Assembly (NCBI RefSeq): GCF_023517775.1
Contig: NZ_CP082904.1
Location: forward strand, 3,038,001 to 3,102,000
Direction: 5' to 3'
Source: Mixta hanseatica
Lineage (GTDB): Bacteria > Pseudomonadota > Gammaproteobacteria > Enterobacterales > Enterobacteriaceae
Length of the DNA: 64,000 nucleotides
Positions within the stretch are counted from its first letter, which is position 1. Each line of letters begins with the position of its first letter. The notes beneath the pieces are model-generated. The model did no database searches. It was not told where the DNA came from and saw nothing but the letters and a program-made list of their open reading frames with translations. Made by a program: the position numbers and the translations under genes. Of the stretch, positions 3,960 to 30,372 are shown piece after piece.

Positions 3960-3965
3960 GTGTAG

Positions 3966-3990
3966 AAAGGCGCCCTAAAGGCGCCTTTTT
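3966..3990 (+). terminator. terminator of the tRNA operon
   Basis: The stem AAAGGCGCC (3966-3974) pairs with GGCGCCTTT (3980-3988) around the loop CTAAA and runs into five T residues. Confidence 0.9.
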
Positions 3991-4012
3991 GCTATGTAAA
4001 AACGGCAGGATG

Positions 4013-4095: not shown

Positions 4096-4121
4096 ATCCT
4101 GCACGACCCACCAGTGTAGAG

Positions 4122-4144
4122 AGGCGCCCTAAAGGCGCCTTTTT
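4122..4144 (+). terminator. second copy of the tRNA operon terminator
   Basis: AGGCGCC (4122-4128) and GGCGCCT (4134-4140) form a stem around CTAAA and are followed by a T run. It copies the terminator at 3966-3990. Confidence 0.8.
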
Positions 4145-4278
4145 GCTATATAAAGATGGCAGGATGAGAACCCCGCCCTTTCTTTTCACTTTCTTAGCGC
4201 TTTTTTTACGCTTCGCACCCTGAAGTCTCATCTCCTGATAACCGATAAACGTATTGGTCTATAACCAAGGAGATAATC

Positions 4279-5555: not shown

Positions 5556-5648
5556 CTTTTTTATTCATCAATGGATGCAATAAATCAATTTTATTTCTAA
5601 ACCCGTCTGACGCACAATAGGCCATCGAATTTTAACCTGGTTTTAACA

Positions 5649-6665
5649 ATGCGAATTCTGCGTCTCGACCCGATGATGGTCAAATTGCTGATCGTGGTGC
5701 TGCTGGCGACCTTTTTACCGGCAAAAGGCGGCTTTGTTCCTTTTTTTGAATGGCTTACCACCGCCGCGATTGCGCTGCTGTTCTTTATGCACGGTGCCAA
5801 ACTGTCGCGTGAAAAAATCATTGCCGGCAGTAGCCACTGGCGGCTGCATCTGTGGATTCTGTTCAGTACCTTTGTGCTGTTCCCCATCCTCGGGCTGCTG
5901 CTGGTATGGTGGCATCCGGTGAACCTGAGCGATGAAATTTACACCGGCTTCGTTTACCTGTGCATTCTGCCAGCCACGGTCCAGTCCGCTATCGCTTTTA
6001 CTTCCATGGCAGGCGGTAACGTTGCAGCGGCGGTCTGTAGCGCCTCTGCTTCCAGCCTGCTCGGCGTATTCATCTCGCCGCTGCTGGTCAATCTGGTGAT
6101 GAATATTCATAGCGAGATGCCAGGCAACGGCCTGGAGCAGATTGGGCGCATTATGTTGCAACTGCTGGTGCCGTTTGTGCTGGGGCACCTGTCGCGCCGC
6201 TGGATTGGCGGCTGGGTTGAGCGCCATCGCAGCCTGATTGGCAAAACCGATCAAACGTCTATCCTGCTGGTGGTCTATTCCGCCTTTAGTGAAGCGGTAG
6301 TTAACGGTATCTGGCATCGGGTAGGCGTCATTACCCTGCTGTGGATTCTGGCGGGAAGTGTACTGCTGTTGGCAATTGTGTTGGTGATTAATGTGCTGGC
6401 GGCGCGACTGTTCGGCTTTAAGCGGGCGGATGAAATCACTATTCTGTTCTGCGGCTCGAAAAAGAGCCTGGCGAATGGCGTGCCGATGGCTAACATCCTG
6501 TTTCCCGCCGCCGCCGTGGGGATTATTGTTCTACCGCTGATGGTGTTTCATCAGATACAGCTGATGGTCTGCTCGTTTATCGCCCAACAGTATAAAAAGA
6601 AGAATGAAACTGAGCTGCAAGCCAGCATGCCGAAAGGCAAAGCGGTAGTAGAGTCGCAGAAATAA
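5649..6665 (+). CDS. yfeH: bile-acid:sodium symporter family protein YfeH
   Basis: A 338-residue integral inner-membrane protein with about ten hydrophobic segments. It belongs to the BASS/SBF-like family (the short bacterial YfeH form). Recognisable blocks include FFMHGAKLSREKI near residue 45 and FCGSKKSLANGVPMA near 270, the latter at the crossover region that binds ions in BASS proteins. The C-terminal 25 residues are polar and cytoplasmic. The substrate is unknown. Its regulator YfeR is divergent. Confidence 0.85.
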   Translation: MRILRLDPMMVKLLIVVLLATFLPAKGGFVPFFEWLTTAAIALLFFMHGAKLSREKIIAGSSHWRLHLWILFSTFVLFPILGLLLVWWHPVNLSDEIYTGFVYLCILPATVQSAIAFTSMAGGNVAAAVCSASASSLLGVFISPLLVNLVMNIHSEMPGNGLEQIGRIMLQLLVPFVLGHLSRRWIGGWVERHRSLIGKTDQTSILLVVYSAFSEAVVNGIWHRVGVITLLWILAGSVLLLAIVLVINVLAARLFGFKRADEITILFCGSKKSLANGVPMANILFPAAAVGIIVLPLMVFHQIQLMVCSFIAQQYKKKNETELQASMPKGKAVVESQK

Positions 6666-6670
6666 CCCTG

Positions 6671-6693
6671 ACGCGCCGTCGTTGACGGCGCGT
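6671..6693. terminator. hairpin between convergent yfeH and ypeB
   Basis: A 10-bp perfect stem, ACGCGCCGTC/GACGGCGCGT, with a GTT loop. There is no T run, so termination may be weak or Rho-assisted. Confidence 0.6.
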
Positions 6694-6694
6694 A

Positions 6695-8942
<2,248 letters not shown>

Positions 8943-8949
8943 TCAGAGA

Positions 8950-8975
8950 AAGAAAACCCCCGGCAAGCGGGGGTT
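8950..8975 (-). terminator. terminator between zipA and ligA
   Basis: AACCCCC (8955-8961) and GGGGGTT (8969-8975) form a stem; on the minus strand it runs into TTTTCT. It lies just after zipA, so ligA probably also has its own promoter or depends on read-through. Confidence 0.75.
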
Positions 8976-9000
8976 CAGGGAACAAAGCGGGAACCGGCTA

Positions 9001-10056
9001 TCAGGCGTTTGCGTCGACAACGTCGCGAATACGCGCCTTATAGGTTTCCAGTTTTTGCGGCGTCATCATCCGACGCTCATCGTCCAGCACCACGCCGCCG
9101 ACATCGTCAGCGATGCGCTGCGCCGACTGCAGCATTAACTTAAAGTTTTGATGCGGATCGCCATAAGACGGCACCATCATAAAGATAGAAATGCCGGGCG
9201 TGCTGAAGTCTGACATGGCATCGGGATTGAAGGACCCCGGCTTCACCATGTTAGCCAGGCTAAATAACACCGGGCCGCTTCCCGCCGGGCTTAAATGACG
9301 ATGGAAGATATTCATTTCGCCAAACTGGAAGCCCGCCTGCAGAATACCCTGTAGCAGACTTTCACCGTTCAGCTCGCCGCCAGCATGAGCGGTAACATGC
9401 AGCACCAGCACGGTCTCTTTGCGACGCGCCTCTTCACGCGGCTGCGCGGCAGGCTCCGCCGCTGCGGGCGCAACCGGCGCATCGCTTTCAGCGGTCATAA
9501 CCGGCTCATCATCCAGCCACTGCGGTTCATCATCAAGTAACGGATCGGCAGGCTGCTGTAACGGCGCTTCAGGTTGGCGCGCTGGCGCCGGCTGCGGCGC
9601 ACGCGGTTCAACAGGCTGAGGCGCACGCGGCGCGGCAGGCTGGCGCTCGTCTGACGGTCGCGGTTCGAAAGCGTCACGATCGGCCGCGTCGGAAGGCGCG
9701 CCGTCAAACAGCGGATCGCGTTCCGGTTGCGGCGCCACGGGCACCGACGAACGCGTCGGTTGCGGCTTACGCGCAGCAGGACGTGGCGCTGGCTCTTCGT
9801 CTTCTGCAGTAAATCCATCAAAAGAAGGTTCGTTATGTGAAGATTTTGCCGGCGTACGTCGGACCCGAACATCACCCACACCGTTGGTGTCCTCTTCGGT
9901 CAGGCTATCTTCTTGATCCTGTTTCAAACGCTTGTGCGGGCGATCGCGAAACACAGATGAGCGCTCTTTACGGCTGGTCCACAGCCCGTGAAGCAGCAAC
10001 GCTATTATGGCGATCGCGCCAACAACGATTAATATCAGACGCAAATCCTGCATCAT
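9001..10056 (-). CDS. zipA: cell division protein ZipA
   Basis: A 351-residue inner-membrane protein that tethers FtsZ to the membrane and stabilises the Z ring. Residues 1-28 form the N-terminal anchor ([20 protein letters not shown]), followed by a short basic region and a long Pro/Gln/Ala-rich linker (about 60-210). The globular FtsZ-binding domain fills about residues 212-351 ([19 protein letters not shown]). The frame extends 13 codons upstream, but MMQDLRL is the conserved start. The linker is highly charged, with several DDEP repeats. It is divergent from cysZ. Confidence 0.97.
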
Positions 10057-10274
10057 TGTATTCTCTGTTGTTCCAATACCTTGCCACCACGGCAAACTTT
10101 ATCCTCTAACTGTATTTGTCCCGCTAAACAAGTGCAAGTCTGCACCGGCTTTTCTGACAAATAAGATAGAGCCACCCCGCTTTTTTGCTGTTTTTTCAGC
10201 CAAAAGGCGACTGGTAACAGAAAAAAGCCAGGTTATGATAGCCTGGCCTGTCAAACAGAGGAGAAAAACTGTCG

Positions 10275-11069
10275 ATGGCCCCGGTTCAACCTGCTTCCTA
10301 TAATGGTGTTCACTACTTTGCTCAGGGCTGGAAACTGATCCGCCTGCCGGGCATTCGCCGGTTCGTTATTATTCCACTGCTGGTGAATATTATTCTGCTC
10401 GGCGGCGCCTTTATCTGGCTGTTTTATCGCCTCAATGAGTGGATCCCCCAATTGATGTCGCATGTGCCTGGCTGGTTACAATGGTTAAGCTATCTGCTCT
10501 GGCCGCTTACCGTGCTCTCGATTGTGCTGGTATTCAGCTACTTTTTTTCCACTATTGCTAACTGGATAGCCGCCCCCTTCTGCGGGCTGCTGGCGGAGCA
10601 GCTGGAGGGACGGCTGACCGGCCAACCGATGCCAGACAGCGGCTGGCTGGCGCTGGTAAAAGATATTCCACGCATCATGAAACGTGAATGGCAAAAGCTC
10701 GCCTGGTATTTGCCGCGCGCGTTGGGGTTACTGCTGCTTTACTTTATTCCCGGTTTCGGCCAAACCGTGGCGCCGGTGCTGTGGTTTCTGTTCAGCGCCT
10801 GGATGCTGGCGATCCAGTACTGCGATTATCCCTTTGATAATCACAAGGTCAGCTTTCAGAAAATGCGTGGTGCCCTGCGCCAGCACAAAACGGCTAATAT
10901 GCAGTTCGGTGCGCTGGTAAGCCTGTTTACTATGGTGCCGCTGCTTAACCTGGCGATTATGCCGGTCGCGGTCTGCGGCGCCACGGCGATGTGGGTCGAT
11001 CGTTATCGTCAGCAGTTGGGCATGCCTGAGTTTCGCTCCGCGGATGCGCAGCGGGTAAGCACGCGCTGA
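10275..11069 (+). CDS. cysZ: sulfate transporter CysZ
   Basis: A 264-residue inner-membrane protein of the CysZ family that takes up sulfate for cysteine synthesis. It has four hydrophobic regions and the conserved blocks [16 protein letters not shown] near residue 90 and [20 protein letters not shown] near 170. The ribosome site AGAGGAG precedes ATG 10275. The C-terminus has about ten more residues than E. coli. It lies upstream of cysK in the same direction with a 144-bp gap. Confidence 0.95.
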
Positions 11070-14765: not shown

Positions 14766-15269
14766 ATGGGTTTTTTATCCAAACTTTTTGGCGATAAAAC
14801 AGAAAGCGCATCTGGCACCATTGAGATCGTCGCCCCGCTGTCTGGTGAGATCGTAAATATCGAAGACGTGCCAGACGTAGTATTTGCGGAGAAAATCGTT
14901 GGCGATGGCATCGCTATCAAACCAGCAGGCAACAAAATGGTTGCTCCGGTTGATGGCACTATCGGCAAAATTTTCGAAACCAACCATGCATTCTCTATCG
15001 AATCAGATAGCGGCATTGAGCTGTTCGTTCACTTCGGTATCGATACCGTGGAGCTGAAAGGCGAAGGCTTTAAACGCATCGCGGAAGAAGGCCAGAAAGT
15101 GAAGAAAGGCGACGTCGTGATCGAGTTTGATCTGCCGCTGCTGGAAGAGAAAGCGAAATCTACCCTGACGCCGGTAGTGATCTCAAATATGGACGAGATC
15201 AAAGAGCTGACTAAGCTGACCGGTCAGGTGACCGTTGGCGAAACGCCGGTTATTCGTATTAAAAAATAA
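14766..15269 (+). CDS. crr: PTS glucose-specific EIIA
   Basis: A 167-residue EIIA-Glc, the cytosolic phosphocarrier for glucose transport and the main signal for inducer exclusion and adenylate cyclase control. His74 (ETNHAFSI) and His89 (LFVHFGID) form the active pair; His89 is the phosphorylated one. The N-terminus is two residues shorter than in E. coli. The ribosome site TAGGAGA precedes ATG 14766. Last gene of the pts operon. Confidence 0.97.
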
Positions 15270-15381: not shown

Positions 15382-15621
15382 ATATCCTGCCTGTGGCCTG
15401 GTTTTTAGCGCCTCCCTTTGGCTTTGATAAATGCCCCGTTTTTTCTTTGAACGCTATCCCTGATAGTACTATTGGTATTTTATTTTCCCTTTTTAACGCT
15501 TAAGACTTTCAATTTATATTAATACGTTTTAATTAACTCAAATACAATTGACTTCCTCTGGGCAAAACCCTCCAATTGGCTGAAATATAAAGTAAACCGT
15601 TAACTCAGGATGGGTTTCAGC

Positions 15622-16875
15622 ATGCCTGCCTCTCTGCTTTTTATCTCGCCACGGCGTGCAATATTATTTTGCCTGCTGCTCTCTTTATTCGAACTGCTTA
15701 CTTATGTCGGCAGTGATTTTATTATGCCCGGCATGCTTGATATTATTACCGAGCTGAATGCCGACCCGCGCTATGTTCCATTTTCGCTTAACGCCTATTT
15801 GCTGGGTGGTGTCGCCTTCCAGTGGCTGATTGGCCCTTTATCCGATCGCTTCGGCCGGCGGCCCTTATTATTAACGGGCTGCGCCCTCTTTGCTCTTACC
15901 TGCCTTGCCACGCTCTGGATAAAGGAGGTAAATCTGTTTACCCTGCTGCGCTTTTTCCAGGGCATCGGTCTGGGTTTTGTGGTTGTCGTCAGCTATCCCG
16001 CCCTACAGGAGAGCTTTAGCGAGGCGGATGCGGTGCGCCTGCTCGCCATTGTCGGCAATATCGCCCTGCTCTCTCCTCTGCTTGGCCCGCTGGTGGGCAG
16101 CGTACTGTTGTCGGTGATGGAGTGGCGCGCAATGTTTATTACTATTGCTCTGCTAAGCATGCTGGTATGGCTCGGTTTGTACTGGCTGATGCCGGAAACG
16201 GTCGACGTGCCCCGTAGAGAAGGCGGCACGATCGCCCCTACGCCGCTCCGGCTGCAGGATCTGCGCAATGATTATCTTAATTTACTGCGCAACCAACGCT
16301 TTATTGCCGGCTGTCTCGCTCTTGGTTTAACCGGGCTTCCGCTGCTTTCCTGGATAGCCCTCTCGCCGTTACTGCTTATGCACAACCTTGGCCTGAGCAC
16401 CTATGCCTATGCCTTGTGGCAGTTGCCGGTCTTTGGCGCGCTTATTTTCGGCAATTTCGCGCTGAATACACTGATAAAGCACTTCAGCATTGAGCAATTG
16501 CTGCGTATTTCACTGCTGCCGATGCTGGCCGGGATGGTGCTGGGGCTGATATTTACCTCTATTACCGCTCATATTCTGGCTTTGATCGGCGGGCTGGCCG
16601 TTTACGCCTTTGGCCTTGGTATCGGCAACGCCACGCTCTATCGCCTGACGCTCTATTCAAGCGAGAGCGGCAAAGGTTGCGTATCCGCTATGCTCGGCAT
16701 GATTTCAGTTGCGATATACGGTTTAGGTAGCGCCGCGCTCACGGCACTTGGCGCGGGAGAAAGCCTGACTGCTTTTAGCATCTCCGCCGCGATCTGCGCG
16801 ATTACCGCCCTATGGCCAGTGCTTTATATGTTATCCCGCGCCACCCCGGCGGGCGAAAGCGGCGTATCAATTTAA
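15622..16875 (+). CDS. MdfA-like MFS drug/metabolite exporter
   Basis: A 417-residue, 12-segment major facilitator. The acidic residue in TM1 (FELLTYVGSDFIMPGML), the loop motif GPLSDRFGRRPLL between TM2 and TM3, and the antiporter motif C region ALLSPLLGPLVG are those of the MdfA/MdtM group, which swap protons for drugs. An earlier ATG at 15610 is possible; 15622 has better spacing to AGGAT. It is followed after 40 bp by the LuxE-like gene, so it probably exports the product of the cluster or protects against it. In E. coli this place after crr holds pdxK in the opposite direction. Confidence 0.8.
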   Translation: MPASLLFISPRRAILFCLLLSLFELLTYVGSDFIMPGMLDIITELNADPRYVPFSLNAYLLGGVAFQWLIGPLSDRFGRRPLLLTGCALFALTCLATLWIKEVNLFTLLRFFQGIGLGFVVVVSYPALQESFSEADAVRLLAIVGNIALLSPLLGPLVGSVLLSVMEWRAMFITIALLSMLVWLGLYWLMPETVDVPRREGGTIAPTPLRLQDLRNDYLNLLRNQRFIAGCLALGLTGLPLLSWIALSPLLLMHNLGLSTYAYALWQLPVFGALIFGNFALNTLIKHFSIEQLLRISLLPMLAGMVLGLIFTSITAHILALIGGLAVYAFGLGIGNATLYRLTLYSSESGKGCVSAMLGMISVAIYGLGSAALTALGAGESLTAFSISAAICAITALWPVLYMLSRATPAGESGVSI

Positions 16876-17299
16876 TCCAGGCGCCGATTAATCATTCCAG
16901 GGAGGAATAAGTATTATGGCCAGTCTCGCCAATGTTGATGCGCTATGCGCGCTCGATCATCCTTATCTGCGTAACGCTGAGACGGATCGATTATTTGATG
17001 CCGCAATGCGTGAAATTACCTTACACCATCTTAATCACACCCCCTTTTATGACCGATGGTTGAGCGATAATGGCATTCAACCTGAATCGATAGACAATAT
17101 TCAATGCTGGTCGCAGCTCCCTCCGCTGTTCGCCAACTATTTCAAGCGCCGTCTTCTGCTGAGCGAAACTGGCAAAGAGGGTATGGAGCTGACCTCATCA
17201 GGCACGACCGGACAGAAAAGCCGTATGCGTTACGACAGCCGTAGTATTGGAGCGGCACAGGGCATGGTGGATCATATCTTCCGTTACTATGGCTGGGAG

Positions 17300-17326
17300 T
17301 GTAGTGGTTTACTGAATTTGGCCACC
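17300..17326 (+). repeat. IS left inverted repeat
   Basis: The 27-bp left end begins TGTAGTGGTTTACTGAATT. It matches the reverse complement of 18522-18548 at 20 or more positions, with differences in the middle only. Confidence 0.85.
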
Positions 17327-17371
17327 TGAACAGAGGTGATATGCTCACCTCAGAACATTACAGGTGCCTCA

Positions 17372-18548
<1,177 letters not shown>

Positions 18549-19302
18549 GAGACGCCGCAAGCCCCCTGCAATTATCTGCTATTGAGTTATGAACCGGCCG
18601 ACAGCATCACGCTGGGCACCGCTTATACCGATCAGTTTCTCTGTAAATATGCGCCAATCAAACGTTCGGTCTATGCGTTACGTTACAACGGGAAAGATAA
18701 TGAGTTCGATCCCTTTGGCGTGATTCGCGCTTTACAAGAGTTTGCGCAAGAAGGCGCTCCGGTCCGGATATTCGGTTTCCCCGCCTTTATGTGGTTTGTG
18801 CTGGAACGTATGCGTGATATGAACCTGCCCACGCTGAAACTTCATCCCGACTCGCTGGTTTTCTTTGGCGGCGGCTGGAAAACCTATGCCGATCGCGAGA
18901 TCCCCAAAAGCCAGCTCTATGCCCGTTTGCAGCAACAGCTGGGTATCCCGGATAGTCGCTGTCGGGATGGCTATGGCGCCGTTGAGCACTGTGTGCCCTA
19001 TATCGAATGCCCGCATCATCACTTCCATTTGCCGATTTATGCCAGAGCTTACATTCGCGATACCGCGACGTTCGCCGTGCAGGCTTATGGTCAACGCGGC
19101 TTTATTCAGTTTGTTTCCCCTTATATTACATCCAGCCCGGCCCACAGCATTGTAATGAGTGATTTAGCGGTACTGCATGCAGGCGAAACCTGCGGATGCG
19201 GCATTAAGACCGACTGGTTCGAACTGCTGGGACGTGCCAGCACGCACAAGGCGCGCAGCTGTGCGCTGGCGGCGTCTGAACTGATTAAGGAGCGCAAGTA
19301 AT

Positions 19303-21720
19303 ATGTATCTTATCCAGGGGAAAACCTATGCCAATCTCACGCCTGAGCAGACGATAGCCCTACTGAATAAACGGTTGGATAACCCGCAAGATTACGCCTG
19401 CCATGCTGAAGCCGTTATCGCCTGCGCGGAGACGTTTATTCAGCGTCTGCAGGAAAGCGCCTTTATTCCGCAGTTGGATGCGTCACTGCGCCAGGAAATA
19501 ATAACCTTTTGCCAGCCGACGGCGCTGCGCAACAAGCTGGAGCGGGAACTGGGCGACAATCCTTTTTCTTTACGGCGCATCGACTATCATCTTCCCCATT
19601 TTGAAAGCTGGCGAGCCCTCGGCGTAGTGGTGCATATTACCCCGGCCAATGCGCCCCTGTTGCCTTTCTTCGCCCTGCTGGAAAGCCTGCTGGTCGGTAA
19701 CGTTAACTGGTTGCGCCCAAGCTCCAGCGATCGGGGATTAACGGCTCAGCTGCTACAGGCATTTCTCAAAGGCGATGACAGAGGCGAGCTGGCCAACTTT
19801 ATCGCGGTATTACCGGTTAGCGCCGAACAGCTGCCCCAGCTGATCGCCCTGGCGGATGGCGTGTCGGCCTGGGGAAGCGATACGGCTCTTACCGCCATTC
19901 GTCAAATGCTGCCCAACGGATGCCGCTGGATAACCTGGGGTCATAAAATCAGTTTCGCTTACCTTGTCCCCGATGCGCTGGATGACGCTATCTTTGATGC
20001 CGCCGTTGATGAAGTCTGCCGCTTCGATCAGCAGGCCTGCTCCAGCCCGCAGCTTATTTTTATCGACAGCGATGATCCCGCTATCTTGCAAACTACAGGC
20101 CAGCGGCTGGCGCAGGCATTTGAACGCCGCCACCCGCAATGGCCCGCCCTGACGCCCAGTGAACGGGAGGCGGCAGATATTACCAGCTACACGGCTTTTA
20201 CCCGTCTGGATCGCGCCTTTGCCACTGCCGAAAACAGCCTGTGGATCGGCAACGGCTGGCGTATCATCTGGCAGCATGAGACAGCAATAGAACCCTCTCC
20301 GCTTTTCCGTACGGTACTGCTGCGCCCGTTGCCCCGCCAGCAGCTTCTTCAGGCGTTGCGGCCGTGGCGCGCCCAGCTGCAAACCTGCGGTCTGGCAACC
20401 ACGCCGCAGGATATGGCGCCGCTAAGCCAGTTAATCATCAGCGCGGGCGTGAACCGCATTACGCCGGTGCAAAATATGCATGACGGCTACGCCGGCGAGC
20501 CGCACGATGGCGTATATGCGCTAAGCCGGCTAGCTAAACGCGTATCGGTTACGCTGGCTGTCGATATGCTGCCGCGCCAGGCGACACTCGACCTGCTGCC
20601 AGCTGCCCCGGCAATACCTGAGAACACGCCGATAATGGGTAAACAGCAATTTCTGCGGGATTCGCTACAGCCGTGCGCTCAACTGTTCTTTCGCAGCGGC
20701 GGCAGCAGCGGCGACCCGAAGCTGGCTGGGTTTACCTGGCGCGACTACCATCGTCAAATGCAGGCCGCCGCGGACGGGCTCTTCGCCGCCGGGCTCGATC
20801 CGGCATGCGATAAAGTGATGAATCTGATGTATGCCGGCAACCTTTACGGCGGCCTGCTGAGCTTTTTTACCCTGCTCGATAAGCTCAAGGCGACAAATTA
20901 CCCCATGGGCGGGCCGGATGATGGTAATTACGGCGAGGTGGCACGCCTTATTGTACAGCAAGGTATCGATACCCTAATCGGAATGCCAGCTACGATTTAT
21001 CAGCTGTTCCAGCGCGAAGCGGATACTCTAAGAGCCTACGGAGGGGTTAAAAAATTGCTGCTGGGCGGGGAGCATATCGGCACGGAGCTGCGCGCCTATC
21101 TTCAACGTTTTGGCGTCACCACTATTCGCTCGGCGATTTATGGTTCGGTTGATGCCGGCCCGCTTGGCTATGCCTGCCATGCCAGCCCGGACGGCATATT
21201 TCACCTGATGTCCGATATTCAGTGGCTGGAAATTGTCGATCTGGATCGTGATGAAGCTGTTAGCGACGGAGAGACAGGACGCCTGCTGTTTACGTCCAAA
21301 GCACGCGACGGGCAAAAAATTATGCGTTATGACATTGGCGATACCGGCCGCTGGGTAAAAGGGATCTGCGCCTGCGGCAACGCCAGTCCGCGTTTTGAAC
21401 TGCTGGAGCGTCACGGCAATCTGGTGCGTATCGGCACTATGTTTATCCAGCCTCAGCGCCTGGCGTCACTGGCGCAGGTGCCTGTCCAGTTGATCCTTGA
21501 ATACGCCCCTGGCGGAGGCGATCGCATACGTCTGCTGGCGGACGGTGATGCCGGGGAAGTGCGCCACCGGGTCATTACCGATGGCGAACTGGTCCTGGCG
21601 CTGAAAACCGCTTTGCTGGAGTTTGAGGTTATCAGCCAGCCTTTTGCTCTTTTCGAACGTCATGCCCAGAGCGGCAAAACCCCCTTATTTATCGATAAAC
21701 GCCTGCAAGCAGGAAAATAA
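19303..21720 (+). CDS. LuxC-like acyl reductase fused to an adenylate-forming domain
   Basis: An 805-residue two-domain protein. Residues about 1-440 match the LuxC acyl-CoA reductase family, which reduces an activated acyl group to an aldehyde with NADPH. HITPANAPLLPF (111-122) marks the nucleotide site and Cys246 in DQQACSSPQ the catalytic cysteine. Residues about 446-805 match PaaK/CapK-type adenylate-forming enzymes: phosphate loop FFRSGGSSGDPK (462-473), YGSVDAGPLGY (613-623) and MRYDIGDTG (674-682). Normal LuxC is about 480 residues and stands alone, so the fusion lets one chain activate and reduce a carboxylate. It starts one base after the LuxE-like stop, implying coupled translation. 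The substrate is not known. Confidence 0.85.
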   Translation: MYLIQGKTYANLTPEQTIALLNKRLDNPQDYACHAEAVIACAETFIQRLQESAFIPQLDASLRQEIITFCQPTALRNKLERELGDNPFSLRRIDYHLPHFESWRALGVVVHITPANAPLLPFFALLESLLVGNVNWLRPSSSDRGLTAQLLQAFLKGDDRGELANFIAVLPVSAEQLPQLIALADGVSAWGSDTALTAIRQMLPNGCRWITWGHKISFAYLVPDALDDAIFDAAVDEVCRFDQQACSSPQLIFIDSDDPAILQTTGQRLAQAFERRHPQWPALTPSEREAADITSYTAFTRLDRAFATAENSLWIGNGWRIIWQHETAIEPSPLFRTVLLRPLPRQQLLQALRPWRAQLQTCGLATTPQDMAPLSQLIISAGVNRITPVQNMHDGYAGEPHDGVYALSRLAKRVSVTLAVDMLPRQATLDLLPAAPAIPENTPIMGKQQFLRDSLQPCAQLFFRSGGSSGDPKLAGFTWRDYHRQMQAAADGLFAAGLDPACDKVMNLMYAGNLYGGLLSFFTLLDKLKATNYPMGGPDDGNYGEVARLIVQQGIDTLIGMPATIYQLFQREADTLRAYGGVKKLLLGGEHIGTELRAYLQRFGVTTIRSAIYGSVDAGPLGYACHASPDGIFHLMSDIQWLEIVDLDRDEAVSDGETGRLLFTSKARDGQKIMRYDIGDTGRWVKGICACGNASPRFELLERHGNLVRIGTMFIQPQRLASLAQVPVQLILEYAPGGGDRIRLLADGDAGEVRHRVITDGELVLALKTALLEFEVISQPFALFERHAQSGKTPLFIDKRLQAGK

Positions 21721-21809
21721 CACATTATCGGACCCGCGCCCGCCACGTTATGTAGCCGGGTCCTGCCGCAGAAAGCGGCGTAGCAGATACGGAAAGGAAA
21801 CCGCACATC

Positions 21810-23150
21810 ATGACCAACTCTATTTCCAGTCAAACCTGTAGTTCAGCCAGCGTCTTCACCGATACGCTGATGCAAAAACGGCTGTTATCCCCTGAGCAGC
21901 TGGTCGCCTTTGCCCGTCAGCGCTCCCCCTATTACGCTCATCTTTATCGCGATGTACCGCAAGCGGGCTGGCAGCTTGCCGATCTGCCCCTGACCGACCC
22001 GGTGACTTACTGGCAAGGTAACTTTAGTCTGCAAGACTGGTCGGTATTAACCGGGCCCGTCAACGAGGCTATCGTGTTCAAAACGGGCGGCACGACGGGC
22101 AACGCCAAGCTATCGATCTATTCGCGCGATGAGTGGCTTAGCTTCGTCACCGTCTTCGGCCGCAGCATGGACAATCAGCTTCAGCCGGGCGATCGCTTCG
22201 CCAATCTCTTTTTCGCGGGTGATCTTTACGCCAGCTTTCTGTTTATCCACGGTGCGCTAACCCATATGAAAGTACCGGTGTGCGAATATCCCTTTACCGG
22301 CACTATCGACTTCTCATCGTTAAGCGCTCAGCTGCTGCGGCATAAGATAAATGTGCTGGCGGGCATACCGGCAATGCTGCTGCGCTACGCGGCTGATCTG
22401 GCGACCAACGGACGCACATTGCCAGGCATTACGACCCTGCTTTATGGTGGAGAAAGCCTGTTCGACGAACAGTTGCGACTGTTTAAGCAGGTATTCCCTT
22501 GCGCGCGCATCGCCTCTATTGGCTGCGCCAGCGTCGATGCGGGACTGATCGGCGCCAGTACGATCGACTGTCAACTGGATGAGCATCGCAGCTTTGAACC
22601 CGAAACTATTGTAGAAATTATTGATGAGAGCACCGGTGAGACGATACAAGAGCCGCATCGCCCGGGCATGTTGGTAGTGACCAACCTGACGCGAACTTTG
22701 ACACCGCTTATTCGTTATCCCGTAGGGGATCTGGCGGCATGGGTCGAGCCAGAGGGAATAACAGCCCGCAAGTTTATCCTGCTGGGGCGCAGCAGTCTGG
22801 GGCACCGGATACGCGTAGGTTATACCTCGCTTTATCCGGACGAACTGGCGGTCCAGATCGGTGACGTGGTCGGCAATTATAGCTGGCAACTGCTAATCGA
22901 GCAGACCGGGAGTTGTCATCATCTTACGGTGCGCATCGCTTTTTCCGGTAATAACGCCCAGGCTGAAAGTCTGATACAGCGTATTACTGAGGATGATCCC
23001 AGTATCGCTAAGCAGTCTCAGGCGCATCAGCTGACGCTGAGAGTGCAATGGTGCCAACAGTCAGATTTGACGCTGCATCCGCGTACCGGCAAGCTACAGC
23101 GCATCGTCGATCGGCGTAACTATGGCGTTAAGGCGGGAGAAAAGGAATGA
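21810..23150 (+). CDS. PaaK/CapK-like adenylate-forming enzyme
   Basis: A 446-residue member of the family that includes phenylacetate-CoA ligase and coenzyme F390 synthetase. These enzymes activate a carboxylic acid as an acyl-adenylate. The phosphate loop FKTGGTTGNAK is at residues 90-100, with LLYGGESLFDEQ near 210 and IRYPVGDLAAW near 305. The C-terminal domain ends in LTLHPRTGKLQRI, with a lysine in the usual catalytic place. It is the third adenylate-forming unit in the cluster after the LuxE-like gene and the fusion protein. It overlaps the next gene by 4 bp (ATGA). The 89-bp gap before it holds no other gene. Confidence 0.85.
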   Translation: MTNSISSQTCSSASVFTDTLMQKRLLSPEQLVAFARQRSPYYAHLYRDVPQAGWQLADLPLTDPVTYWQGNFSLQDWSVLTGPVNEAIVFKTGGTTGNAKLSIYSRDEWLSFVTVFGRSMDNQLQPGDRFANLFFAGDLYASFLFIHGALTHMKVPVCEYPFTGTIDFSSLSAQLLRHKINVLAGIPAMLLRYAADLATNGRTLPGITTLLYGGESLFDEQLRLFKQVFPCARIASIGCASVDAGLIGASTIDCQLDEHRSFEPETIVEIIDESTGETIQEPHRPGMLVVTNLTRTLTPLIRYPVGDLAAWVEPEGITARKFILLGRSSLGHRIRVGYTSLYPDELAVQIGDVVGNYSWQLLIEQTGSCHHLTVRIAFSGNNAQAESLIQRITEDDPSIAKQSQAHQLTLRVQWCQQSDLTLHPRTGKLQRIVDRRNYGVKAGEKE

Positions 23151-24088
23151 GGCTCGCCGGGACGCCGATCGTTCGTGATTTCCAGGAAGGCGATGCGGAA
23201 AGCATCAGCAAGCTGTTTCGCATCATTTATGGCGAGCGCTATGTTTACCCTGAAGTTTATCTGCCCGCCATGATCCGCCACTATAATCAGCAACGACGCT
23301 GGCATACTCTGGTTGCCACGCTTAACGGACGTATTGTCGGCCAGGCCAGCCTGGTATGGGACAACGCAGGCTTCGACCATCCGGAGCTGGCGATGATGGT
23401 GGTGCATCCGCATTACAGAGGGGCTGGCGTGGCCACCTCTCTGGGCCGAGCCCTGTGTCACTATGCCCGGGAGCAGGGCGTCGCCGCGCTGACGATTAAA
23501 ATGGTATCAACCCATACGCAAACCCAACAGTTGGCTTGTCGGCTCGGTTTTTACACCACCGGTCTGCTGCTGGATTATGTCGACACCCCTTTTGATAATC
23601 AGGGGCGGGAAAGCATCATTCTGGGCATGCTGCCGCTTCAGCCCAGCCCATTGCCGCACGGTTTAATAGATGCCGCTGCGCCAGCCTGGCTCAGACAGCT
23701 GAGCAGACAATTCGGCACCGGCCCGTCGCTGCCCAGTAGAGAACGTACCGCGCCGTTACATATCGCCAGTTATGGAAGACGAGTCGACATCCGGTTAAGT
23801 AGCGCTGCTAATCAGCGCCTAATAGATGAGGTGGCCGATTTGCCCTCCGGCTGTCTGATTCACCTGCGCATTCAGATAACGCCTGCATTGCCGTCATTAC
23901 TGACGCGGTTGCATCAGGCGGGCTATGCCGATATGGGCATCGCGCCGGCGGCGGACAGGCAATGGTATTGGCTGCTACAACGCGGATATACGCTGGGCGA
24001 GCGCACGTTTCGCTGCCCTGTAGCGCAGGCTTTATACAACAGCATCAACAAGTCCGCTATCTTGCCTGCCAGTGCGGCAGACGGATAA
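23147..24088 (+). CDS. GNAT-family acetyltransferase
   Basis: A 313-residue protein. Residues about 5-165 form a GNAT fold: acetyl-CoA motif MMVVHPHYRGAGVATSL near residues 83-99, then KMVSTHTQTQQLACRLGF. Residues 170-313 form a second part of about 140 residues that I do not recognise. Its start overlaps the adenylating enzyme by 4 bp, so it belongs to the same operon and may N- or O-acylate the product. Its 3' end overlaps the histidine kinase on the other strand by 32 bp, tail to tail. Confidence 0.8.
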   Translation: MRLAGTPIVRDFQEGDAESISKLFRIIYGERYVYPEVYLPAMIRHYNQQRRWHTLVATLNGRIVGQASLVWDNAGFDHPELAMMVVHPHYRGAGVATSLGRALCHYAREQGVAALTIKMVSTHTQTQQLACRLGFYTTGLLLDYVDTPFDNQGRESIILGMLPLQPSPLPHGLIDAAAPAWLRQLSRQFGTGPSLPSRERTAPLHIASYGRRVDIRLSSAANQRLIDEVADLPSGCLIHLRIQITPALPSLLTRLHQAGYADMGIAPAADRQWYWLLQRGYTLGERTFRCPVAQALYNSINKSAILPASAADG

Positions 24089-25409
24089 TCATTTCTAATC
24101 CACCGTTACGTCCGTTAAGCGCCTGTACTTCGCCATGATGCGCCAGCACCACCTTACGCACGATAGATAACCCTAAACCGTAGCCTTTGCCCTGCATGGG
24201 CGAATTCACGCGCACAAAAGGATCGAAGATGCTGGAGAGCTTATCGGCATCCACCCCCGGCCCGCTATCGCTTACGCGAATGCTTAGCCAGCCGCCATCG
24301 GGCCTTAGGGTGACCCGCACTACCTGTCCCTGCACTGAATAGCGCAGCGCGTTGCGCACTACATTCTCCACCGCCCGGCGTACCAGCTCGGCGTTGCCTT
24401 TCACCGTGTAATCGACCTTCTCTTCTACTTCCAGCGCAATCTCTACGCCAGGCAGCTGCGCCTCATAACGCGCATCATTCACCACCGTTTCCAGCAGACC
24501 GTGAAGATCGAAATATTGCTCGTCAGGCATCTTTTCATTTTCGGCGCGCGACAGCGTCAGCAGCTCGCCGATCATTTTATCCAGCCGCCGCGCCTCTTCA
24601 TCAATACGATTGAGCGACGCGTTAACCGATTCCGGCGTCTGGCGAGCCAGGCCGGTTGCCAACTGCAGTCGCGCCAGCGGCGAGCGCAGCTCATGAGAGA
24701 TATCATGCAGCAACTCTTCACGCGCTTTTACCAGCACCGCCAGCCGCTCCACCATCGCATCGAAATCTCGCGCGACTACGGAAAACTCATCGTGACGACG
24801 ACGCATCTGCGGATAGAGGCGCACCGAGAGATCGCCATTGGAGACGCGGGTAAAGCCCAAACGTAATTGACGCATCGGACGCGTCAGATTCCAGGCGAGC
24901 AGAGAGCTGAACAGCAGGCCCATCAGTCCAGCGAACCAAAACACCGGTTCAGGAATATTGAGGATTTTACGCGGCGGCCCGCCCATCTCGCTATCTTCCC
25001 GCAGCCCTTTTACGTCATAACGTAGCTGGTATTGTTGGCCGTCCGCGCCGGTCACCCACTCGATAACCTGATCGGGAAAACCGTTGCCCGGCAGCGACGG
25101 CGTAAGCTGCTGACGCGGAATCTCCTGCGGCGGTCTCGCCATTGGCGTGACAGAGAAAAAGCGTCGATCGCCGGGCGACCAGTCCGACATCATATTATCC
25201 AGCGCCGGCAGACCGCCGTGCTGCAATACCGAAACGGCAGAGGCCATCTGTAGATTAACAATGCGTCGCGTAGCGATATGCTCCGGCGGCTCGCGATGCT
25301 TGCCATACAGCGTAAACCCGAGCCATAGCAGCTGGCTAATCAGAAAAAACACCAGCAAAAAACCAAACAGAATTTTCCAGAACAGGCGGCCAGGAAAACG
25401 GTTCTTCAT
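24057..25409 (-). CDS. CpxA-like sensor histidine kinase
   Basis: A 450-residue inner-membrane kinase. TM1 is at about residues 11-35, a periplasmic domain of about 115 residues follows, and TM2 is at about 153-174. Next come HAMP, the dimerisation domain with the phospho-accepting His239 (DISHELRSPLARL), and the ATPase domain with an N box (RRAVENVVRNALRYS), DSGPGVD and GLGLSI. It overlaps the response regulator by 4 bp, so the two are coupled. The sequence is nearest to CpxA-type envelope-stress kinases, but the true cpxA is expected elsewhere, so this is probably a paralogue. Confidence 0.88.
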   Translation of the reverse strand: MKNRFPGRLFWKILFGFLLVFFLISQLLWLGFTLYGKHREPPEHIATRRIVNLQMASAVSVLQHGGLPALDNMMSDWSPGDRRFFSVTPMARPPQEIPRQQLTPSLPGNGFPDQVIEWVTGADGQQYQLRYDVKGLREDSEMGGPPRKILNIPEPVFWFAGLMGLLFSSLLAWNLTRPMRQLRLGFTRVSNGDLSVRLYPQMRRRHDEFSVVARDFDAMVERLAVLVKAREELLHDISHELRSPLARLQLATGLARQTPESVNASLNRIDEEARRLDKMIGELLTLSRAENEKMPDEQYFDLHGLLETVVNDARYEAQLPGVEIALEVEEKVDYTVKGNAELVRRAVENVVRNALRYSVQGQVVRVTLRPDGGWLSIRVSDSGPGVDADKLSSIFDPFVRVNSPMQGKGYGLGLSIVRKVVLAHHGEVQALNGRNGGLEMIIRLPHWQAR

Positions 25410-26086
25410 CGAATGCGGTAACCAATGCTGCGTACGGTTTCAATATTGAGCGCGTCGCCGGTCAGGCTGGAGAGCTTCTGGCGAATATTGCTGATATGCA
25501 CATCCACGCTGCGATCGTATGCTTCGCGCGGACGTCCCAGCCCCTTCTCCGATAGCTCATCTTTTGAAACCACCCGATCGGGCGCGCGCAACAGCAGATC
25601 GAGCAAATTAAATTCCGACGCGGTCAGATCAAACGGCTTGTTTTTCCATTCGCTGATGCGGGTGGCGGGGTTAAGCGTAAGATCGCCCCAGCGCACCACC
25701 TCTTGTTTCTCCTGTTGCGCAGGCAGTTCATCGAAACGACGCAGCACCGCACGCAAACGCGCCACCAGCTCGCGGGGGTAACAGGGCTTGGGAACATAAT
25801 CATCGGCGCCCATTTCAAGCCCGATCACCCGATCGATATTATCCCCTTTCGCCGTCAGCATAATCACCGGAATGCGACTGCTTTGCCGCACCTGACGCAG
25901 CACATCGATACCGCTCATATCCGGCAGCATGATATCCAGGATCATCGCCTGGAACGCCCCGGACAGCGCGCCGTTAATACCGGCCTGCCCGGTCAGCACC
26001 AGCGAGGCATCGAAGCCCTCGCCCATTAAATATTCGCTGAGCATGGTGCCCAGCTCCAGATCGTCGTCAACTAACAGAATTTTCAT
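25406..26086 (-). CDS. CpxR-like response regulator
   Basis: A 226-residue OmpR-family regulator. The receiver domain covers 1-115, with acidic DDD at 7-9, phospho-acceptor Asp51 in MILDIMLPD and the lysine in YVPKPCYPREL. The C-terminal winged helix covers about 130-226 (FDLTASEFNLLDLLL, RSVDVHISNIRQKL). It is divergent from macAB with a 170-bp gap, so it may control macAB and itself. Confidence 0.9.
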   Translation of the reverse strand: MKILLVDDDLELGTMLSEYLMGEGFDASLVLTGQAGINGALSGAFQAMILDIMLPDMSGIDVLRQVRQSSRIPVIMLTAKGDNIDRVIGLEMGADDYVPKPCYPRELVARLRAVLRRFDELPAQQEKQEVVRWGDLTLNPATRISEWKNKPFDLTASEFNLLDLLLRAPDRVVSKDELSEKGLGRPREAYDRSVDVHISNIRQKLSSLTGDALNIETVRSIGYRIR

Positions 26087-26148
26087 GCGTACACTCTCAC
26101 AAACGGTTGACGTTATTTTGAGCTTAAGCGGAAAAGTACGCAGCAGAA

Positions 26149-26164
26149 TTTACTCAATCCTTAC
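26149..26164. promoter_or_regulatory. candidate CpxR-like binding box
   Basis: TTTAC, six bases and CTTAC read on the other strand as GTAAG-N6-GTAAA, close to the tandem GTAAA consensus of CpxR. It lies between the divergent response regulator and macA, where a control site would be expected. Confidence 0.4.
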
Positions 26165-26256
26165 AGAGATTGTTGCCTGATTGCGCTGCTGTTTCACTTT
26201 ATTGTGGCAGGCTTTTACGTTATACCAGTGCTTTCTTCGTACCAGGGATATTGTTC

Positions 26257-27453
26257 ATGGCATTACGCCGCACCTTATTCGGCCGTAAAAGGTTTTTACT
26301 GCTGGTGCTTTTGATTATTGTGGTGGTTATCGTTTGGGCGCTGCTGCCCCAGCGCAAGGCGCCTACCGAATTTTTGACCGCCACCGCTGAACAGCGTCCG
26401 CTACAGCAGGCGGTACTGGCAGACGGCACGCTTACCGCCAGTAAACTGGTGAGCGTCGGCGCGCAGGCTTCCGGTCAAATCAAGCGGCTGCGGGTCGAAT
26501 TAGGCGATCAGGTCAAAGAGGGCCAGCTGGTAGCGGAAATCGACAGCATGACGCAGCAAAACGCCCTGCAAAATGCCCAGGCGGCCTTAAAGAATATTGA
26601 AGCCCAGCGAGCGGCTAAACAGGCGCAGCTAAGCAATTATCGCGCGGCCTTTGCCCGCCAACAGGCGATGCTGGCTAAAAATCTGACTGCAAAAGCGGAT
26701 TATGATGACGCACAGGCGATCCTCGCTACGACCGAGGCGGAGATCCGCGCGTTGGATGCGCAGATTGTTCAGGCGCAGATTGAGGTAAACACCGCGCAGG
26801 TGAACCTCGGCTATACCCGCATCGTTTCCCCGATGGACGGCACGGTAGTTTCCGTACCGGTTGAGGAAGGCCAAACGGTTAACGCTGTCCAAAGCGCGCC
26901 GACGCTGATCAAAGTGGCTAATCTCGATACCATGACGGTAAAGGCGCAGATTTCTGAAGCGGACGTGATCAAAGTCGAGCCGGGGATGAAAGTCTGGTTT
27001 ACCATTCTCGGCGAGCCGCAGAAGCGTTATGAAGGCACGCTGCGCGCCATTGAACCCGCTCCGGATTCGATTAATAACGACACCAGCAGCAGCCTGACCA
27101 GCGCCTCCAGCAGTAGCTCCAGCGATAAAACCGCCATTTATTATTATGGCCTGTTTGACGTGCCGAATCCGCAGCATCGCCTGCGCATTTCGATGTCGGC
27201 AGAAGTGCATATCGTACTGGGCGAACGGCAAAATGCCGTAGTAATCCCCGCCACCGCGCTGGATAATCTGGATGGCAAAAGCTCGGTGCAGATAGTAGAT
27301 GCCAACCAGCAGGTAACGCGCCGTCAGGTTACGGTAGGCCTGAATAATAATGTCGAAGCGGAAATCCTTTCCGGCCTGAAGCCGGGCGAAAAAGTGGTGC
27401 TGGGTCAGCGCAGCACGGCGATAGCAAAGGCTGACGGTATGGGACCACGCTAA
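26257..27453 (+). CDS. macA: MacA, periplasmic adaptor of a MacAB-TolC pump
   Basis: A 398-residue membrane-fusion protein with one N-terminal membrane anchor ([18 protein letters not shown]). Next come a split lipoyl domain ([20 protein letters not shown] and [22 protein letters not shown]), a long coiled-coil hairpin (about 95-175, Ala/Gln rich), a beta-barrel and a membrane-proximal domain. A Ser-rich insert (residues about 275-288) breaks the barrel region. The frame opens at 26170 but ATG 26257 gives the family start after an AGGGAT site. It overlaps macB by one base (TAATG). The tripartite pump exports macrolides, peptides or siderophores in relatives. Confidence 0.92.
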
Positions 27454-29390
27454 TGGCGCTGCTACAGCTGAATAATATCTGCCGTTCGTTCCAGAACGGC
27501 GAGCAGCAGGTGCAGGTGCTGCGCAATATAAACCTGGCGATTGATTCCGGCGAGTTCGTGGCCATTGTCGGCCAATCCGGATCGGGTAAATCAACCTTAA
27601 TGAATCTTCTCGGCTGCCTGGATAAAGCCAGCGCTGGTGAATATCTTATTGCCAATCGCGCCGTCTCGGCGCTGGATAACGATGCGCTGGCGGCGCTGAG
27701 GCGCGAATATTTCGGTTTTATTTTCCAGCGTTATCATCTGCTAAGCGAGCTGACGGCGTTAGGCAACGCCGAGATGCCTGCCATCTATGCCGGCCAGGCG
27801 GTGCAGGCGCGTCGCGAACGAGCCACCGCTCTGCTTACACGCCTTGGCCTCGGTGAACGCCTGCATTATCGGCCCGGTCAGCTTTCCGGCGGACAGCAGC
27901 AGCGCGTCAGTATCGCGCGCGCCCTGATGAACGGCGGCGAGGTGATTCTTGCCGATGAGCCGACCGGGGCGCTTGATAGCCACAGCGGCGAAGAGGTGAT
28001 GCGCATTCTGCATGATCTGCATCAGCAAGGGCATACCATTGTTATCGTGACGCACGATATGCAGATTGCGCAGCATGCACAGCGCATTATTGAAATCCGC
28101 GACGGGGAAATTCTCAGCGACAGCCGCCGGCAACCGGCAGAATCCCGCCCGCGCCAAATCACCCAACGTACCGAAGGCAACGCCTGGCGCGCCGCGCGCG
28201 ATCGCCTGACCGAGGCGTTTCGTATGGCGCTGGTCTCTATGATGTCGCAGCGCTTACGTACTTTTCTTACCATGCTCGGCATTATTATCGGTATCGCTTC
28301 AGTGGTTGCCGTGGTGGCGCTGGGTAAAGGATCGCAGCAAAAAATCTTGCAGGAAATCAGTTCAATGGGTACCAGCACGCTGGAGATCTATCCCGGCAAA
28401 GATTTTGGCGATATGCACTCTTCGTCGATTCAGACGCTGCGCGCCAGCGATGCGGATGCGCTGGCTTATCAGCCCTATGTTCACAGCGTAACGCCGCTGC
28501 TTTCGACCAGTACCACACTGAAATATCGTAATCAGGCGCTAACGGTGTCGGTTAACGGTGTTGGCGAGCAGTTTTTTGCTGTGCGCGGCTATCAGATAAC
28601 CCAGGGAATGGCGTTCGATCGTCACAGCGTCGAGGATCTGGCGCAGGAGGCGGTAATTGATAAAAACACCCTCAAGCGGCTGTTTCCACAGGGTGAAAAC
28701 CCGTTAGGAGAGGTGGTAATTTTGGGTAATATGCCGGTGCGTATTATCGGCGTCGCCAGTCATCAGAGCAGTTTTGTCAGTGACAGCAACCTTAATATCT
28801 GGGTGCCCTATACCACCGTCATGAAGCGCATGGTCGGGCAAACCTGGCTCAGCGGCATTACCGTGCGGGTACGCGATAACGTTGATCTGCCGCTGGCGGA
28901 GCAAGGCGTCACGCGATTGATGATGCAGCGCCATACAAGCAAAGATTTCTTTATTTTTAACGCCGACAGCATTCGCCAGACGATAGAAAACACAACCAAT
29001 ACCATGACGCTGCTGGTGGCGATGATTGCATTGATTTCACTGCTGGTAGGCGGCATTGGAGTAATGAATATCATGCTGGTTTCGGTGACCGAGCGTACCC
29101 GTGAAATCGGCGTACGTATGGCGGTAGGCGCTCGCGCCAGCGATATTATGCAGCAGTTTTTAATTGAGGCGGTGCTGGTCTGCCTGACCGGCGGCATTAT
29201 CGGCGTATTATTGTCGCTGGTGCCGGGAGTCATACTGGCGCAGGCCACCAGCAGTTTCAGCATGATCTACTCGCCGTTCTCGATCGTGGCAGCGTTTGTC
29301 TGTTCCAGTCTGATTGGCGTTGTGTTCGGCTTTTTCCCGGCACGGCGCGCCGCAAGGCTCGATCCGATTCACGCGCTGGAGCGCGAATAG
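27453..29390 (+). CDS. macB: MacB, ABC transporter of the MacAB-TolC pump
   Basis: A 645-residue protein with an N-terminal ABC ATPase and a four-helix membrane domain. Walker A is [10 protein letters not shown] (near 39-48), the signature [15 protein letters not shown] (near 144-158) and Walker [15 protein letters not shown]1 is at about 270-295, followed by a large periplasmic domain and TM2-TM4 near 520-640. All motifs are intact. With MacA it forms a mechanotransmission pump. The position beside the LuxC/LuxE cluster and the CpxRA-like pair leaves open a role in export or stress defence. Confidence 0.95.
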
Positions 29391-29490: not shown

Positions 29491-30372
29491 TTACGCATAG
29501 ACGCCGGTTGAAAGATAACGGTCGCCGCGATCGCAAACGATGGCGACCACCACGCTGCCCGGATTTTCCGTCGCGATACGAATCGCGCCCGCCGCCGCGC
29601 CGCCAGAGCTTACGCCGCAGAAAATGCCTTCACGCCGCGCCAGCTGGCGCATAGTCTCTTCCGCTTCGCCCTGCCCCATATCGATTATGCGATCGATCAG
29701 TTCCGGGCGCCAGATGCCCGGCATATAGGCTGCCGGCCAGCGACGGATGCCCGGAATGCTGCTGCCTTCCTGCGGCTGTAGGCCAATGATCTCAACCTGC
29801 GGGTTTTGCTCTTTCAGATAGCGGCCGACACCGGTTATGGTACCGGTGGTGCCCATACTGGAAACAAAATGGGTGATGCGTCCGGCGCTTTGCTGCCAAA
29901 TCTCCGGGCCGGTGGAGGCATAGTGTCCCAGCGGGTTATCGGGATTATTAAACTGATCCAGCACTTTGCCTTCACCGCGCGCCGCCATCGACTGGGCCAG
30001 ATCGCGCGCGCCTTCCATTCCCTGCTCACGGCTGACCAGCACCAGCTCCGCCCCGTAAGCGCGCATCGCCGCCTGCCGTTCCTGACTCATATTATCCGGC
30101 ATCAGCAGCTTCAGTCGGTATCCTTTCATCGCGGCGATCATCGCCAGCGCAATACCGGTATTGCCGCTGGTCGCTTCGATAAGCAGATCGCCGGGCGTGA
30201 TTTCACCACGTTGTTCGGCGTGCTGGATCATTGACAGCGCCGCACGATCCTTCACCGAACCGGCAGGATTGTTGCCCTCCAGCTTTAGCCAGATCTCGCT
30301 GCCATTATCAGGCGTCAGGCGCTGTAGTTTAATCAACGGCGTATTGCCAATGGTGGTTTCCAGAGTCGTCAC
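29491..30372 (-). CDS. cysM: cysteine synthase B
   Basis: A 293-residue pyridoxal-phosphate enzyme making cysteine from O-acetylserine and sulfide, or S-sulfocysteine from thiosulfate. The cofactor lysine lies in NPAGSVKDRAAL (near residue 41), [11 protein letters not shown] (near 67) binds substrate, and SSMGTTGTITGV (near 172) binds phosphate. It starts with GTG. The C-terminus is about ten residues shorter than E. coli CysM and ends at YLSTGVYA. It follows cysA after 73 bp as last gene of cysPTWAM. Confidence 0.96.
   Translation of the reverse strand: MTTLETTIGNTPLIKLQRLTPDNGSEIWLKLEGNNPAGSVKDRAALSMIQHAEQRGEITPGDLLIEATSGNTGIALAMIAAMKGYRLKLLMPDNMSQERQAAMRAYGAELVLVSREQGMEGARDLAQSMAARGEGKVLDQFNNPDNPLGHYASTGPEIWQQSAGRITHFVSSMGTTGTITGVGRYLKEQNPQVEIIGLQPQEGSSIPGIRRWPAAYMPGIWRPELIDRIIDMGQGEAEETMRQLARREGIFCGVSSGGAAAGAIRIATENPGSVVVAIVCDRGDRYLSTGVYA

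What the first reader, a model, noticed from the sequence alone, without database searches (positions are those of the whole stretch)
15622..24088. LuxC/LuxE/PaaK gene cluster without luciferase: possible undescribed small-molecule pathway
Seen: an MdfA-like exporter, a LuxE-like gene, a LuxC-adenylation fusion, a PaaK-like enzyme and a GNAT acetyltransferase in one direction with 1-bp gaps or 4-bp overlaps between most genes. Known: LuxC and LuxE together turn an acyl group into an aldehyde; PaaK-type enzymes activate carboxylic acids. Inferred: the cluster activates one or two acids, reduces one to an aldehyde or alcohol, acylates the product and exports it. There is no luxA, luxB or luxD, no NRPS or PKS and no carrier protein, so this is not bioluminescence and not a standard assembly line. 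It occupies the crr-cysM interval, where E. coli has pdxK/yfeK/yfeS.
Basis: partly seen in the sequence, partly recalled or inferred. Interest (0 to 1): 0.82.

Follow-up and report, generated by a model that had tools for sequence, protein, structure and literature searches.

The report
Leupeptin gene cluster, one gene interrupted
This five-gene group is a relative of the already published gene set that makes leupeptin, a small protease inhibitor, and in this isolate one of its genes is split by a jumping gene, so it is a new case of a known system rather than an unknown pathway.

Summary
They match the leupeptin cluster (leupABCD plus adjacent transporter) published from Klebsiella michiganensis. 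Two printed leupA/leupB primers translate to peptides found at the predicted positions in P0125 (LuxE-like) and in Klebsiella LuxC-AMP proteins (P0007). The window's relatives are 74% (LeupA, via intact P0121) and 65% (LeupB) identical to these. So LuxE = LeupA, LuxC-AMP = LeupB, and by order PaaK-like = LeupC, GNAT = LeupD. A-B-C-D order holds in 15 of 15 LeupB-bearing genomes among 392 sampled in the family. Active-site cysteines are invariant. The product is probably leupeptin or a close peptide aldehyde; this is inferred, not measured.

In this isolate leupA is split by a 1,249-bp IS3-family element (27-nt imperfect ends, 3-bp duplication). No second leupA was found in the genome, so the strain is probably a non-producer. 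A nearly identical intact LeupA (P0121) is in the protein database. The genus is Mixta. Its seven other held genomes lack the cluster at this site, and a LeupB tree rejects pairing with Mixta theicola, so horizontal arrival is likely. Salmonella conjugative plasmids carry the cluster; Streptomyces replicons carry the same parts.

The parts
15610..16875 (+). MFS (MdfA-like) transporter, counterpart of the 'adjacent transporter' of leupABCD; proposed exporter
   Evidence: directly upstream of leupA in 5 of 15 family genomes (one of them broken)
16916..17299 (+). leupA, 5' piece (LuxE-like), interrupted
   Evidence: 99.2% identical to residues 1-128 of P0121; weak LuxE Pfam match, 20.2 bits against 24.9
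17300..18548 (+). IS3-family insertion element with 27-nt imperfect inverted ends (81%) and GAG duplicated at its edges
   Evidence: six places in the own genome at 100% reported identity
17372..17674 (+). IS3-family orfA (HTH_Tnp_1)
17701..18540 (+). IS3-family orfB (rve integrase core)
18549..19301 (+). leupA, 3' piece (LuxE-like), interrupted
   Evidence: 99.6% identical to residues 128-377 of P0121; LuxE Pfam 72 bits
19303..21720 (+). leupB: LuxC-type reductase fused to a PaaK-like adenylation domain
   Evidence: 65% identical to K. michiganensis P0007
21810..23150 (+). leupC: PaaK-like adenylating ligase
   Evidence: assigned by position
23147..24088 (+). leupD: GNAT acyltransferase with a C-terminal extension of unknown role
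   Evidence: assigned by position

Best explanation
A horizontally acquired leupeptin-type cluster (transporter-leupA-leupB-leupC-leupD) of a Mixta species, interrupted in this isolate by an IS3-family insertion in leupA. Proposed working of an intact copy: LeupD (GNAT) N-acylates leucine; LeupC, the PaaK-like half of LeupB and LuxE-like LeupA activate carboxylates with ATP and join them without carrier proteins into acyl-Leu-Leu-Arg; the chain passes, probably through the conserved C-terminal Cys of LeupA, to the Cys of the LuxC half of LeupB, which reduces it to the aldehyde; the MFS protein exports it. Shown here: family identity, gene order, conserved catalytic residues, the break. Reported by others for homologues: leupeptin from the leup operon. 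Inferred: which ligase takes which amino acid, hand-over between the two cysteines, export by the MFS, loss of production in this strain.
For: Published primers leupA_f and leupB_r (PMC8283571 passages) encode EDSDSQ and EQLKDHA, found at residues 19-24 of P0125 and 47-53 of P0007, P0015 and P0016, at the positions the printed coordinates predict. P0121 v P0125 74%; window LeupB v P0007 65%. A-B-C-D order in 15 of 15. Xenorhabdus bovienii, named as a leup-pyrazinone producer in PMC11480411, has the same A-B-C-D cluster (L055). LuxE and LuxC are the best solved relatives (7xc6), with their Cys aligned and invariant in 114 of 114 and 116 of 116 homologues aligned. In the LeupB tree the window lies in a clade with K. 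michiganensis, with X. bovienii in the sister clade.
Against: Product not measured. K. michiganensis LeupC and LeupD were not found under that name; they are assigned by order and total length (5,921 bp without the insert against 5,831 published). AMP-binding of LeupB is below the Pfam cut-off (27.9 against 29.9). The MFS gene is absent upstream in 8 of 15, so a dedicated exporter is not part of every cluster. LeupD is the least conserved (36-47% in the full-length matches). Enzyme-level roles rest on recall of Li et al. 2020, which was not held.
Confidence: 0.87

Rival explanations
1. A leup-like cluster that makes a different peptide aldehyde (other residues or acyl cap), or whose real product is a pyrazinone signal derived from it.
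For: LeupB is only 65% and LeupC 60-64% identical to most named relatives; K. michiganensis makes a Lys analogue and pyrazinones from the same operon.
Against: The tree places the window between published producers; motif residues around the LeupB adenylation site are conserved.
Confidence: 0.1
2. One reading: one or two fatty or aromatic acids activated, reduced and acylated to an undescribed product.
For: Domain names (LuxC, LuxE, PaaK) read literally.
Against: The same genes in the same order have a published peptide product.
Confidence: 0.02
3. Part of a Vfm-like quorum-sensing locus together with the adjoining two-component system and MacAB-like genes.
For: Sensor kinase, response regulator and macAB-like genes follow directly.
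Against: Vfm rests on NRPS-type genes (vfmO, vfmP) in a 26-gene cluster; no NRPS domain is seen in the scanned cluster ORFs. The kinase gene neighbours crr in the 7 other genomes of the genus, which lack leup at that site, so it is old neighbourhood.
Confidence: 0.01

Closest known systems
leupABCD leupeptin cluster of Klebsiella michiganensis (CAV1374, CP011636.1 315353-321183; PMC8283571, PMC11480411)
   Same: LeupA and LeupB types identified through the printed primers, 1-bp gap between them implied by the printed coordinates, similar total length, transporter adjacent
   Different: 74% (LeupA) and 65% (LeupB) identity; other chromosomal site; leupA interrupted here
leup clusters of Xenorhabdus bovienii and Photorhabdus
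   Same: A-B-C-D in order (X. bovienii locus L055); Photorhabdus LeupA homologues at 74-75%
   Different: LeupB about 54%; the upstream stretch of L055 is too short to judge the transporter
lux fatty-acid reductase LuxE-LuxC (PDB 7xc6)
   Same: LeupA is homologous to LuxE and half of LeupB to LuxC, with aligned cysteines
   Different: No luciferase; LuxC fused to a PaaK-like domain; peptide chemistry, by inference
NRPS- or tRNA-enzyme-made small peptide aldehydes of Streptomyces (antipain, livipeptin; PMC10548850 passages)
   Same: Acyl-peptidyl aldehyde protease inhibitors, as the proposed product here
   Different: Made with NRPS or tRNA-utilizing enzymes per that paper; none seen here

Membership tests
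leupeptin (leup) cluster | LuxE-like LeupA and LuxC-AMP LeupB homologous to the published ones | tested here: met
   Primer-encoded peptides in P0125 and P0007; 74% and 65% identity
leupeptin (leup) cluster | leupC and leupD follow in order, cluster of about 5.8 kb | tested here: met
   Order and 5,921 bp without the insert (arithmetic); no direct comparison with the K. michiganensis LeupC/LeupD proteins
leupeptin (leup) cluster | Adjacent transporter | tested here: met
   MFS 15610-16875; sequence of the Klebsiella transporter not compared
leupeptin (leup) cluster | Active-site cysteines of the LuxE-type and LuxC-type enzymes present | tested here: met
   the catalytic roles are recalled
leupeptin (leup) cluster | All four biosynthetic genes intact | tested here: not met
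   leupA split by an IS3-family element in this isolate; a nearly identical intact LeupA exists in the database (P0121)
leupeptin (leup) cluster | Leupeptin produced | not testable with these tools
   Needs LC-MS
lux bioluminescence operon | luxA/luxB luciferase and luxD in the cluster | tested here: not met
   No such domain among the eight scanned ORFs
Vfm quorum sensing | NRPS-type biosynthesis genes vfmO/vfmP | tested here: not met
   No NRPS domain among the eight scanned ORFs; definition from PMC9306890 abstract and passages

The most novel reading that the evidence does not exclude
The leup-type route (discrete LuxE/PaaK-like ligases plus a LuxC-AMP reductase, no carrier protein) is a widely travelling peptide-aldehyde system, on conjugative plasmids in Salmonella and, with a rearranged gene order, on Streptomyces replicons. 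Its products may differ by lineage, and it may account for some Streptomyces peptide aldehydes now attributed to NRPSs; the Mixta copy may make a variant aldehyde or pyrazinone signal.
Probability: 0.2. Interest if true: 0.5.

Novelty: new member of a known kind. Interest (0 to 1): 0.25.

Why it matters
It replaces 'unknown small-molecule pathway' with a specific, testable product, a protease-inhibitor aldehyde. It adds a leup cluster in another genus, at a new site, then interrupted by an insertion element in one isolate. Database names such as 'acyl-protein synthase', 'long-chain-fatty-acyl-CoA reductase' and 'phenylacetate--CoA ligase' hide this pathway in many genomes.

Tried and rejected
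Vfm quorum sensing was my first idea because of the neighbouring two-component and MacAB-like genes. It was dropped after seeing that Vfm uses NRPS-type genes and that the kinase gene neighbours crr in the 7 other genomes of the genus.

The leupA primer, with up to one mismatch, gave 0 hits in 392 family genomes; K. michiganensis is evidently not in that sample, so the link was made through proteins. E. coli genomes gave no DNA match to leupB. dN/dS between the two Mixta clusters is uninformative, synonymous sites being saturated or nearly so. Promoter-like sites upstream are at chance (2 found, 2.2 expected); terminator-like sites were 6 against 3.2. One paper search for a leup-type cluster in Streptomyces found 0 papers; the leup operon terms returned 2 papers. 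These cover open-licence PMC papers only. Two further papers mention leupeptin only in their reference lists.
Full report
WHAT IS THERE. ORF listing and Pfam scans confirm five gene types in one direction: an MdfA-like MFS transporter (15610-16875), a LuxE-like gene, a LuxC-AMP fusion (19303-21720), a PaaK-like ligase (21810-23150) and a GNAT enzyme (23147-24088). They lie between crr (14766-15269) and cysM (29491-30372, minus strand). The LuxE-like gene is interrupted: its 5' piece ends at 17299 and its 3' piece resumes at 18549. Between them is a 1,249-bp element with 27-nt inverted ends that are 81% complementary, GAG at each edge and IS3-family transposase genes. The same element is found at six places in this genome, all reported at 100% identity. 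A search of the own genome with an intact LeupA found only these two pieces at E<=0.001.

WHAT IT IS. PMC8283571 (passages) gives the leupeptin cluster of K. michiganensis CAV1374 as 315353-321183 of CP011636.1, with an adjacent transporter, and prints a leupA forward and a leupB reverse primer. Read in frame, the forward primer encodes EDSDSQ; P0125 (375 aa, no name given by its source) has HEDSDSQR at residues 18-25. The reverse primer's complement encodes EQLKDHA; the Klebsiella LuxC-AMP proteins P0007, P0015 and P0016 have it at residues 47-53. If leupA starts at the printed 315353, is 375 codons plus stop and is followed by a 1-bp gap, the leupB peptide begins at 316620, the printed primer position, and the leupA primer ends at the printed 315425 (my arithmetic; the printed forward span is two bases longer than the primer). 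So LuxE-like = LeupA and LuxC-AMP = LeupB; by order PaaK-like = LeupC and GNAT = LeupD. The intact relative P0121 is 74% identical to P0125, and window LeupB is 65% identical to P0007. PMC11480411 (introduction in full, otherwise passages) reports leupeptin, a Lys analogue and pyrazinones in K. michiganensis ATCC 8724, attributed to the leup operon, a leup deletion strain, and induction by Neu5Ac. PMC10548850 (passages) cites a MIBiG entry for leupeptin in gammaproteobacteria (Li et al. 2020). That founding paper was not held; what I say of its enzyme-level claims is recalled.

CO-OCCURRENCE. In 392 sampled genomes of the family, 15 have LeupB at E<=1e-60. All 15 have A, B, C and D in the same order and orientation, counting the window (A interrupted) and G184 (B and C truncated against each other). 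The MFS gene is directly upstream in 5 of 15 (one broken, G316). No MFS match above 60 bits lies in the upstream 4.5 kb or more in 8 of 15. In 2 (G019, G400) the contig ends too soon to tell. Outside the family, Pseudomonas brassicacearum L029 has all five in order. Two Salmonella enterica plasmids typed as conjugative (IncFIB, IncFII) have A-B-C-D with an 81-residue fragment of the MFS gene; in CP053580.1 leupD lies in two frames. By exact sequence matches to named proteins, G004 is Mixta theicola, G124 Morganella, G400 Xenorhabdus bovienii and G316 a Cedecea (short or full matches).

HOW IT WORKS (proposal). LeupA, LeupB and LeupC each carry an adenylate-forming unit, and no carrier domain was found in the scanned ORFs. 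A tripeptide aldehyde needs several activations, an N-acyl cap (GNAT) and a reductive release (LuxC). Cys365 of LeupA is invariant in 114 of 114 homologues aligned (114 of the 120 listed had 360 residues or more; the list itself is the best 120 of 897) and aligns with a Cys near the C-terminus of LuxE in PDB 7xc6. Cys246 of LeupB is invariant in 116 of 116 (of 120 listed, of 1251) and aligns with the DQQAC motif of LuxC. Hand-over between these thiols, as in LuxE-LuxC (recalled), is the likeliest last step. Which ligase takes which amino acid is not shown here.

HISTORY. G004's LeupA and LeupB are identical to Mixta theicola proteins, and the tool gives G004 as same genus, so the window's genus is Mixta. 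Of 8 genomes held in the genus, only the window's species and M. theicola have LeupB at E<=0.001. In the 7 others, M. theicola included, crr and the sensor kinase gene lie about 70-180 bp apart (coordinates), so the window's site is empty there; M. theicola carries its cluster on another contig. The kinase is 96% identical between the two species but LeupB only 65%. A quick LeupB tree of 27 chosen rows pairs the window with Yersinia rochesterensis (SH-aLRT 95) and rejects a Mixta pair (p-AU 0.0024; LG+G4). This points to separate horizontal arrivals in the genus. An intact LeupA 99.2% and 99.6% identical to the two pieces (P0121) and a LeupB with 6 differences (P0001), on contigs of other lengths than the window's, indicate close relatives that have a LeupA without this insertion.

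RESULTS AGAINST. AMP-binding in LeupB is below the Pfam gathering score (27.9 against 29.9) and the 5' LeupA piece is below that of LuxE (20.2 against 24.9). The MFS is below the MdfA cut-off and is missing upstream in 8 of 15 relatives. LeupD is the least conserved part. K. michiganensis LeupC and LeupD were not compared directly. The product was not measured. With leupA split, this isolate probably makes none.

VERDICT. Observation confirmed. 'Undescribed pathway' is not supported: this is a leupeptin-type cluster in a further genus, interrupted in this isolate.

Noticed in passing
L038 (NZ_CP108162.1, Streptomyces sp. NBC_00158 plasmid) 893-8334; L039 (Streptantibioticus cattleyicolor pSCAT) 1010-8487: Streptomyces replicons carry leup-like parts in the order PaaK, MFS, GNAT, LuxE, LuxC-AMP. 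LeupA 50-51%, LeupB 38-39% and LeupC 38-41% matches in both; MFS and GNAT by Pfam in L038, but only by reading the ORFs in L039. Annotated I36-type peptidase inhibitors follow in L038. PMC10548850 (passages) describes Streptomyces leupeptin as NRPS-made.
   Followed up: partly
L036 (CP054717.1) 4455-10630; L037 (CP053580.1) 4455-10611: leupABCD on plasmids of Salmonella enterica typed as conjugative, with only an MFS fragment, next to recombinase and toxin-antitoxin genes; leupD lies in two frames in CP053580.1.
   Followed up: partly
L052, L062, L063 and the window: Decay recurs: among the 15 family genomes the window has leupA interrupted, G184 has leupB/leupC truncated, G277 has leupB in two frames and G316 has a broken MFS. 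Frame breaks in draft genomes may be sequencing errors.
   Followed up: partly
window 24057-29390: A CpxA/CpxR- or CreB-like two-component system and macAB-like genes directly follow the cluster, the kinase gene convergent with leupD; family models score below their cut-offs.
   Followed up: partly
own genome G000:C1: Six places with the same IS3-family element, all reported at 100% identity, which suggests recent spread; the other five insertion sites were not examined.
   Followed up: no
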